A DNA stretch of 64,000 bases. Source: Acytostelium subglobosum LB1. Its lineage: Eukaryota > Evosea > Eumycetozoa > Acytosteliales > Acytosteliaceae. The notes under the pieces are model-generated. The model was not told the DNA's origin and ran no database searches. It was given only the letters and a program-made list of their open reading frames with translations. This document shows, piece after piece, positions 1 to 231 of the stretch. The translations under genes were made by a program, and so were the position numbers. Every line of letters begins with the position of its first letter. Within the stretch, counting starts at the first letter, position 1. Where the stretch lies: positions 186,001 to 250,000 of the forward strand of contig NW_012236520.1 of NCBI RefSeq assembly GCF_000787575.1. The letters are read 5' to 3'.

Positions 1-231
1 GATACTCTGATCGAGATGACAGTGGATGAGTATGTCGCATTGCCAGAAGGAAGCAAGAAGTTGCTCATGATGTACAAACAACAAGCACATACTGGCAGCC
101 TCAAGAGTGCCGACTGGTGTTTGTCCAGTATCGAGTCCATAACAGTCCGCGACACCCCCGAGCAGTATTATGGATTCATGGTCGATGGCAATCAGCGGTT
201 CCTACGCGATGACTTCCTCGTCGTCCATAAC
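1..231 (+). other. PRP8 intein, C-terminal 77 residues (5' partial)
   Basis: The first 77 codons do not match Prp8. They read like the C-terminal end of the PRP8 intein known from fungi such as Cryptococcus. TVDEYVALP matches the TVDDFVRLP-type segment of those inteins. A block F-like stretch ([16 protein letters not shown]) and a block G (FLVVHN) follow, then Ser as the +1 extein residue. The penultimate His, terminal Asn (codon 229-231) and nucleophilic Ser+1 needed for C-terminal cleavage are all present. The junction HN/SGFEES is the same site used by the Cryptococcus Prp8 intein (prp8-a). The frame runs into the extein without a stop or splice site, so this is a protein intron. The N-terminal splicing half lies outside the window, so it cannot be seen whether a homing endonuclease domain is present. 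The similarity is from memory of the fungal sequences, not from a search. Confidence 0.93.

What the first reader, a model, noticed from the sequence alone, without database searches (positions are those of the whole stretch)
1..231. PRP8 intein in a dictyostelid, at the same insertion site as in fungi
The window opens inside an intein whose C-terminal splice junction ([10 protein letters not shown]) is intact and identical in position to the Cryptococcus-type prp8-a site. His, Asn and Ser+1 are all present and the frame runs into a complete Prp8 C-extein. PRP8 inteins are best known from fungi. One in an amoebozoan, at the same residue of an essential spliceosome protein, points either to horizontal transfer of a homing intein between soil organisms or to great age. 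Protein splicing would then be needed for every splicing event in this cell. I recall an intein in a Dictyostelium RNA polymerase III subunit gene, so inteins in this group would not be without precedent. I cannot check whether this one has been reported.
Basis: partly seen in the sequence, partly recalled or inferred. Interest (0 to 1): 0.9.

Follow-up and report, generated by a model that had tools for sequence, protein, structure and literature searches.

The report
Social amoeba Prp8 intein, fungal site
The window begins with the tail end of a self-removing protein insert (an intein) inside what is probably a social amoeba's Prp8, the central spliceosome protein, at the site where fungi such as Cryptococcus carry one; the kind is known, but this site in this group is unusual.

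Summary
Bases 1-231 encode the last 77 residues of an intein, ending His-Asn, fused in frame to Ser+1 of a complete Prp8 C-extein (830 aa, one 74-nt intron). The only strong PDB sequence matches are three Prp8 intein chains (E 2e-6 to 3.8e-6; Cryptococcus by recall), aligned to their last residue. The C. gattii intein sits between FWEKA and SGFEE; here SGFEES follows directly, so the site is Prp8-a, in the 1585 loop (yeast Ser1579). An intron cannot end at the junction: the last AG ends 36 bases before it. Linked genes and composition point to a dictyostelid, not a fungal contaminant; A+T of 54.5% fits Acytostelium subglobosum (published 55.0%). Not shown: the N-terminal half, any endonuclease, splicing itself, and the history (transfer or age), because the window starts inside the intein and no wider genome is held. 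Prior art is substantial: Prp8 inteins in Amoebozoa are listed (2018), and a different one, site g, is reported in A. subglobosum (2019). If this is that species, its Prp8 would hold two inteins. I rate it a new member of a known kind.

The parts
1..231 (+). C-terminal 77 residues of an intein (the part with splicing blocks F and G, by alignment); the N-terminal half and any endonuclease would lie before the window
   Evidence: open frame; phmmer to Prp8 intein chains E 2e-6; PF14890 positions 85-155 of 155, E 2e-4, below cut-off
226..231 (+). His-Asn, the penultimate His and terminal Asn of the intein
   Evidence: CAT AAC, sequence; aligned to the HN end of three PDB Prp8 intein chains
232..234 (+). 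Ser+1, the nucleophile of the C-extein, equal to S. cerevisiae residue 1579 and human residue 1507
   Evidence: alignment ranges; Ser follows HN in the PDB inteins too; C. gattii native C-extein SGFEE (PMC6598491)
232..494 (+). Prp8 C-extein, first exon part (Pfam U6-snRNA_bdg region, 1585 loop)
   Evidence: PF10596 E 3.4e-54; PDB Prp8 matches begin at the junction
495..568 (+). predicted spliceosomal intron, 74 nt, GT-AG, within a Cys codon
   Evidence: donor TATATG/GTAAGA and acceptor TTTACAG/CCAG; joined frame has no inner stop
569..2798 (+). Prp8 C-extein, second exon to the stop codon (Prp8 domain IV, JAB/MPN, PROCT)
   Evidence: PF12134, PF01398, PF08084; PDB match over query 1-739 of 742

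Best explanation
A dictyostelid, probably Acytostelium subglobosum, carries a Prp8-a intein. The precursor is translated with the intein in the 1585 loop of Prp8. The intein folds with its unseen N-terminal half and splices by the class 1 route: Cys1 attacks (inferred), the N-extein is passed to Ser+1 (residue present), Asn77 cyclises with help from His76 (both present), and the exteins are joined as ...A-SGFEES.... Active Prp8, and so pre-mRNA splicing, would then need protein splicing first. Shown: the C-terminal splicing residues, homology to Prp8-a inteins, the site, and an intact C-extein. Inferred: the N-terminal half, splicing activity, and the identity of the species.
For: The only strong PDB matches are Prp8 intein chains, ending at the same residue and including the following Ser. 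37% and 34% identity to the two distinct stretches aligned. Score 112 against a shuffle maximum of 59 in 5,000. C. gattii exteins are FWEKA/SGFEE (PMC6598491). Homology to Prp8 without an intein starts at Ser78: all 14 PDB matches at E<=1e-10 begin at query 76 or 77; an empty site reads WEKA-SGFEES in L001, where BLASTP also starts at Ser78. In C. gattii, H169A is inactive and D95A still splices (PMC6598491); here the His is present, and the position that I align with D95 is Glu5. An annotated phage helicase intein matches residues 43-77 (54% identity, E 4e-3), ending within one codon of its annotated end. The 830-codon extein is intact, which suits a precursor that yields working Prp8.
Against: Only part of an intein is seen: Cys1 and the TxxH block are outside the window. 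Pfam's score is under its curated cut-off and NCBIfam finds no intein model. The AlphaFold model of the fragment is useless (mean pLDDT 50.5), so the fold was not tested. No splicing data. The species name rests on base composition and gene kinds, not on a sequence match.
Confidence: 0.9

Rival explanations
1. The stretch before SGFEES is a retained spliceosomal intron or a false exon, not an intein.
For: The gene does have a predicted intron about 260 bases further on, and the upstream half cannot be seen.
Against: The bases before the junction are CATAAC; the last AG before it ends at 195, so no GT-AG intron can end at the junction. The frame is open over all 77 codons, and the peptide matches Prp8 inteins to their last residue.
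Confidence: 0.02
2. The contig is fungal contamination, so the intein is an ordinary fungal one.
For: The vast majority of known Prp8 inteins are fungal (PMC6805012), and fungal contamination was suspected for algal Prp8 inteins (PMC5784728).
Against: The second Prp8 exon scores 1312 bits to human Prp8, 1080 to spp42 (S. pombe, recalled) and 883 to yeast. The linked Roco kinase scores 373 bits to roco4 (D. discoideum, recalled) and 201 to the next family, LRRK1. Poly-Asn runs of 6 or more lie in 3 and poly-Gln runs in 4 of 42 long frames. Roco and Stealth genes are not usual in fungi (recalled).
Confidence: 0.02
3. A broken or misassembled copy: the intein part was joined to Prp8 by an assembly error, or the intein is dead.
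For: The window starts inside the intein; the same scaffold has a 100-N gap at 50752-50851 and three single Ns. GC3 of the intein part, 0.636, is lower than the extein's 0.730 and than 9 of its 10 pieces of equal length.
Against: The join is in frame at the exact known site with His, Asn and Ser+1 kept, and the 830-codon extein is intact. One extein piece, 0.623, is as low in GC3, and other window genes vary more widely.
Confidence: 0.05
4. The intein came recently from a fungus by horizontal transfer (homing), rather than by descent or an old transfer.
For: Same site as in fungi; D. discoideum Prp8 was in the 2006 tree but is not among the carriers named (PMC1508164; PMC1635734).
Against: Only 34-37% identity to the two Cryptococcus stretches speaks against a recent transfer from Cryptococcus; other fungi were not compared. 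No relative was confirmed in viral contigs or in bacterial and archaeal genomes.
Confidence: 0.25

Closest known systems
Cryptococcus neoformans / C. gattii Prp8-a mini-intein (PDB 6mwy, 6mx6, 6owu; species of the entries recalled)
   Same: Same host protein, same site (FWEKA/SGFEE for C. gattii, PMC6598491), same C-terminal HN and Ser+1, homologous over 74 residues
   Different: 34-37% identity; host looks amoebozoan; whether this one has an endonuclease is unknown
Acytostelium subglobosum Prp8-g intein (PMC6805012)
   Same: Prp8 intein in a social amoeba, perhaps the same species and gene
   Different: Site g is at the N-terminal end of Prp8; this one is at site a in the 1585 loop
Dictyostelium discoideum RPC2 intein (PMC1635734)
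   Same: Nuclear intein in a dictyostelid
   Different: Host protein is RNA polymerase III subunit 2; 464 aa, followed by Cys

Membership tests
Intein (class 1) | Terminal Asn (block G), penultimate His, and Cys/Ser/Thr at +1 | tested here: met
   His76, Asn77, Ser78
Intein (class 1) | C-terminal splicing-domain homology | tested here: met
   phmmer E 2e-6 to Prp8 intein chains, score above all 5,000 shuffles; PF14890 E 2e-4 but below the curated cut-off
Intein (class 1) | Cys1 (block A) and TxxH (block B) | not testable with these tools
   They lie before base 1; no whole genome is held
Prp8-a allele | Insertion between FWEKA and SGFEE of Prp8 | tested here: met
   SGFEES follows HN; C. gattii exteins in PMC6598491; empty site WEKA-SGFEES in L001. 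Only the SGFEE side is in the window
Prp8-a allele | Groups with other Prp8-a inteins in a tree | not tested
   Only two distinct Prp8-a stretches were at hand
Homing intein (LAGLIDADG) | Endonuclease blocks C, D, E, H between the splicing halves | not testable with these tools
   That part of the intein would lie before base 1
Dictyostelid host | Linked genes resemble dictyostelid rather than fungal proteins | tested here: met
   roco4 best by a wide margin, myosin IE within 2 bits of the best, Asn/Gln runs. Limit: the PDB holds few other amoebozoans (recalled), so this favours Amoebozoa more firmly than Dictyostelia
Acytostelium subglobosum | A+T near 55%, and sequence identity to its genome | tested here: inconclusive
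   A+T 54.5% against 55.0% published, and 66.2-77.6% for the three other dictyostelids with a value; no sequence of that genome was available to match; A. leptosomum and A. ellipticum are sequenced too

The most novel reading that the evidence does not exclude
A single Prp8 precursor in Acytostelium holds two inteins, site g near the N-terminus (published) and site a in the 1585 loop (this one). Both must leave before the spliceosome can work, and the site-a allele has lived in amoebozoans independently of fungi.
Probability: 0.45. Interest if true: 0.6.

Novelty: new member of a known kind. Interest (0 to 1): 0.42.

Why it matters
Prp8 inteins have been proposed as antifungal targets and stress sensors (PMC6598491, PMC6805012), and the vast majority known are fungal. 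A homologous one at the same residue in a social amoeba gives an outgroup for dating the allele and for asking whether it moved between soil organisms or is old. If the host also has the site-g intein, it would be a case of two inteins gating one spliceosome protein, testable in a laboratory organism.

Tried and rejected
Extending upstream: no whole genome is held for the window. Relatives of the intein fragment: viral contigs, 174 pattern matches, 0 confirmed; genome contigs, 97 pattern matches, 0 confirmed; both scans rest on two short peptide patterns and could miss distant relatives. Prp8 extein relatives, for empty sites: viral contigs 6 matches, 0 confirmed; genome contigs 51 matches, 1 confirmed, L001. 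Plasmids by DNA: no match. Phages by protein: 207 records at E<=1, of which 20 were listed; the lowest E seen was 4e-3, on a helicase intein; H1, a Vibrio phage P-loop protein, E 0.01, was opened but not analysed. I take these as generic intein likeness, not kinship. AlphaFold of the fragment alone: pLDDT 50.5, not used, so no fold search was run. Rfam at gathering: 0 matches. ARAGORN: 0 genes.

Literature, 'already reported?': 'PRP8 intein' (61 papers, 30 listed), intein+prp8+dictyosteli (4), intein+acytostelium (2), intein+amoebozoa (19), intein+heterostelium (0), inteins+social amoeba+homing endonuclease (4), prp8 intein+protist (3), acytostelium+prp8 (1), two inteins+prp8 (8). A tenth search was for dictyostelid genomes. 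I read passages or sections of PMC5784728, PMC6805012, PMC1635734, PMC1508164, PMC4334915, PMC5114724 and PMC6598491, and a term look-up in PMC9410109 gave no passages; other listed papers were not opened. In what I read, none states a site-a intein in a dictyostelid.

Full report
What is there. Frame 1 is open from base 1 to a stop at 496-498 and reads ...[39 protein letters not shown].... From Ser78 on it is Prp8 (PF10596, E 3.4e-54). A predicted 74-nt GT-AG intron at 495-568 splits a Cys codon. The second exon runs to a stop at 2796-2798, and the joined C-extein is 830 residues without an inner stop. It carries the Prp8 domain IV, JAB and PROCT domains.

The first 77 residues are an intein tail. 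Against 177,635 distinct PDB sequences, 5 match at E<=10. Three are named Prp8 and are 176-214 residues long; I recall their entry codes as the Cryptococcus Prp8 intein structures. They have E 2e-6 to 3.8e-6 and align with query 4-77 up to their HN. The other two are at E 0.68 (a DNA primase) and E 1.4 (a DnaB intein). With [11 protein letters not shown] added to a shorter query, the same three lead (E 1.5e-4 to 3.4e-4) and the alignment takes in the next Ser. The MAFFT identity to the two distinct stretches aligned is 37% and 34%. The pairwise score, 112 with 26 identities in 81 columns, exceeds all 5,000 shuffles (maximum 59). Pfam Intein_splicing fits its positions 85-155 of 155 at E 2e-4 but under the curated cut-off, and NCBIfam gave no intein model. 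An annotated phage helicase intein also matches residues 43-77 (54% identity, E 4e-3), ending within one codon of its annotated end.

The site is Prp8-a. PMC6598491 (passages) gives the native exteins of the C. gattii intein as FWEKA and SGFEE. Here SGFEES follows the Asn directly. By alignment Ser+1 is yeast residue 1579 and human 1507, in the region where PMC6805012 (passages) puts site a, the 1585 loop. Homology to Prp8 without an intein starts there. The 14 PDB sequences at E<=1e-10 (13 named Prp8 or spp42, one an MPN domain-containing protein) all begin at query 76 or 77; 3 of these alignments were viewed and each has Ala before Ser. A Prp8 of eukaryotic kind on a contig filed in a Rickettsiaceae genome (L001) reads GLFWEKASGFEES, an empty site.

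An intron does not explain it. The last AG before the junction ends at base 195, and the junction is CATAAC/TCT, so no ordinary intron can end there.

The residues for the C-terminal half of splicing are present: His76, Asn77 and Ser+1. In C. gattii, H169A and C1A are inactive, while D95A still splices (PMC6598491, passages). By my alignment, taking Asn170 as the last intein residue, D95 corresponds to Glu5 here. Cys1 and block B lie before the window and could not be seen. Whether it is a mini-intein or has an endonuclease is open.

The host. Window A+T is 54.5%. The A. subglobosum genome is 55.0%, and the three other dictyostelids with a value are 66.2 to 77.6% (PMC4334915, section 5). A Roco kinase at 46093-49395 scores 373 bits to roco4 and 201 to the next family. 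A class I myosin at 42414-44873 has 'myosin I' (543 bits) and 'myosin IE' (541 bits) as its best matches. Of 42 long frames, 3 have runs of 6 or more Asn and 4 of Gln. The second Prp8 exon is nearer to human (1312 bits) than to spp42 of S. pombe (1080) or yeast (883), which speaks against a fungal contig. The species of roco4 and myosin IE (D. discoideum) and of spp42 are recalled. Naming A. subglobosum is an inference: A. leptosomum and A. ellipticum have also been sequenced (PMC5114724, passages) and I do not know their composition. The long scaffold with one 100-N gap suits the supercontig assembly of A. subglobosum.

What is known. PMC5784728 (sections 5, 7, 8 and 10 read) lists Amoebozoa among Prp8 intein hosts, when six sites a-f were known; the full list is in a supplement I could not open. 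PMC6805012 (section 6 read) describes a seventh site, g, at the N-terminal end of Prp8 in A. subglobosum. PMC1635734 (passages) describes the D. discoideum RPC2 intein. So inteins, and Prp8 inteins, in social amoebae are known. I found no text stating site a in one, within the searches listed under Tried and rejected. The 2018 table leaves open that it was already catalogued.

How it got there cannot be settled here. The low identity to two Cryptococcus stretches (34-37%) speaks against a recent transfer from Cryptococcus; other fungi were not compared. Composition says little: GC3 of the intein part is 0.636, lower than the extein's 0.730 and than 9 of its 10 pieces of equal length (0.623-0.792), yet within their range and within that of other window genes. 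No relative was confirmed in viral contigs (0 of 174 pattern matches) or in prokaryote genomes (0 of 97).

Other inteins in the window: none seen. Pfam was run on 40 of the 42 frames of 110 codons or more kept (overlaps up to 40% allowed): 30 at E<=0.001 (for one WD40 protein 25 of 35 families were shown) and 10 at E<=0.01, and on the Prp8 pieces. Apart from the finding itself no intein or homing-endonuclease family was listed. The frame at 38803-39174 was not scanned, and the frame 243-2795 only through its Prp8 part.

Noticed in passing
L001 1-6956 (JALZUG010000054.1): A contig filed in a Rickettsiaceae bacterium genome encodes a eukaryotic-type Prp8 with an empty site a, so it is probably host or other eukaryotic contamination.
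   Followed up: partly
window 46093-49395 (-): Roco protein kinase with LRR, Roc, COR and kinase domains, closest in PDB to roco4.
   Followed up: partly
window 16741-19618 (-): Stealth-type protein pieces (CR2, CR3, CR4) with Notch/LNR repeats.
   Followed up: no
window 20539-23888 (-): Two adjacent pyridine nucleotide-disulphide oxidoreductase genes of the same Pfam family, perhaps a tandem pair.
   Followed up: no
window 50752-50851; 35658, 41075, 52568: A run of 100 N and three single N, marking a scaffold gap and unresolved bases.
   Followed up: no
window 60770-63999 (+): Class I tRNA synthetase pieces, probably leucyl (LARS1 RagD-binding domain match), running off the window's end.
   Followed up: no
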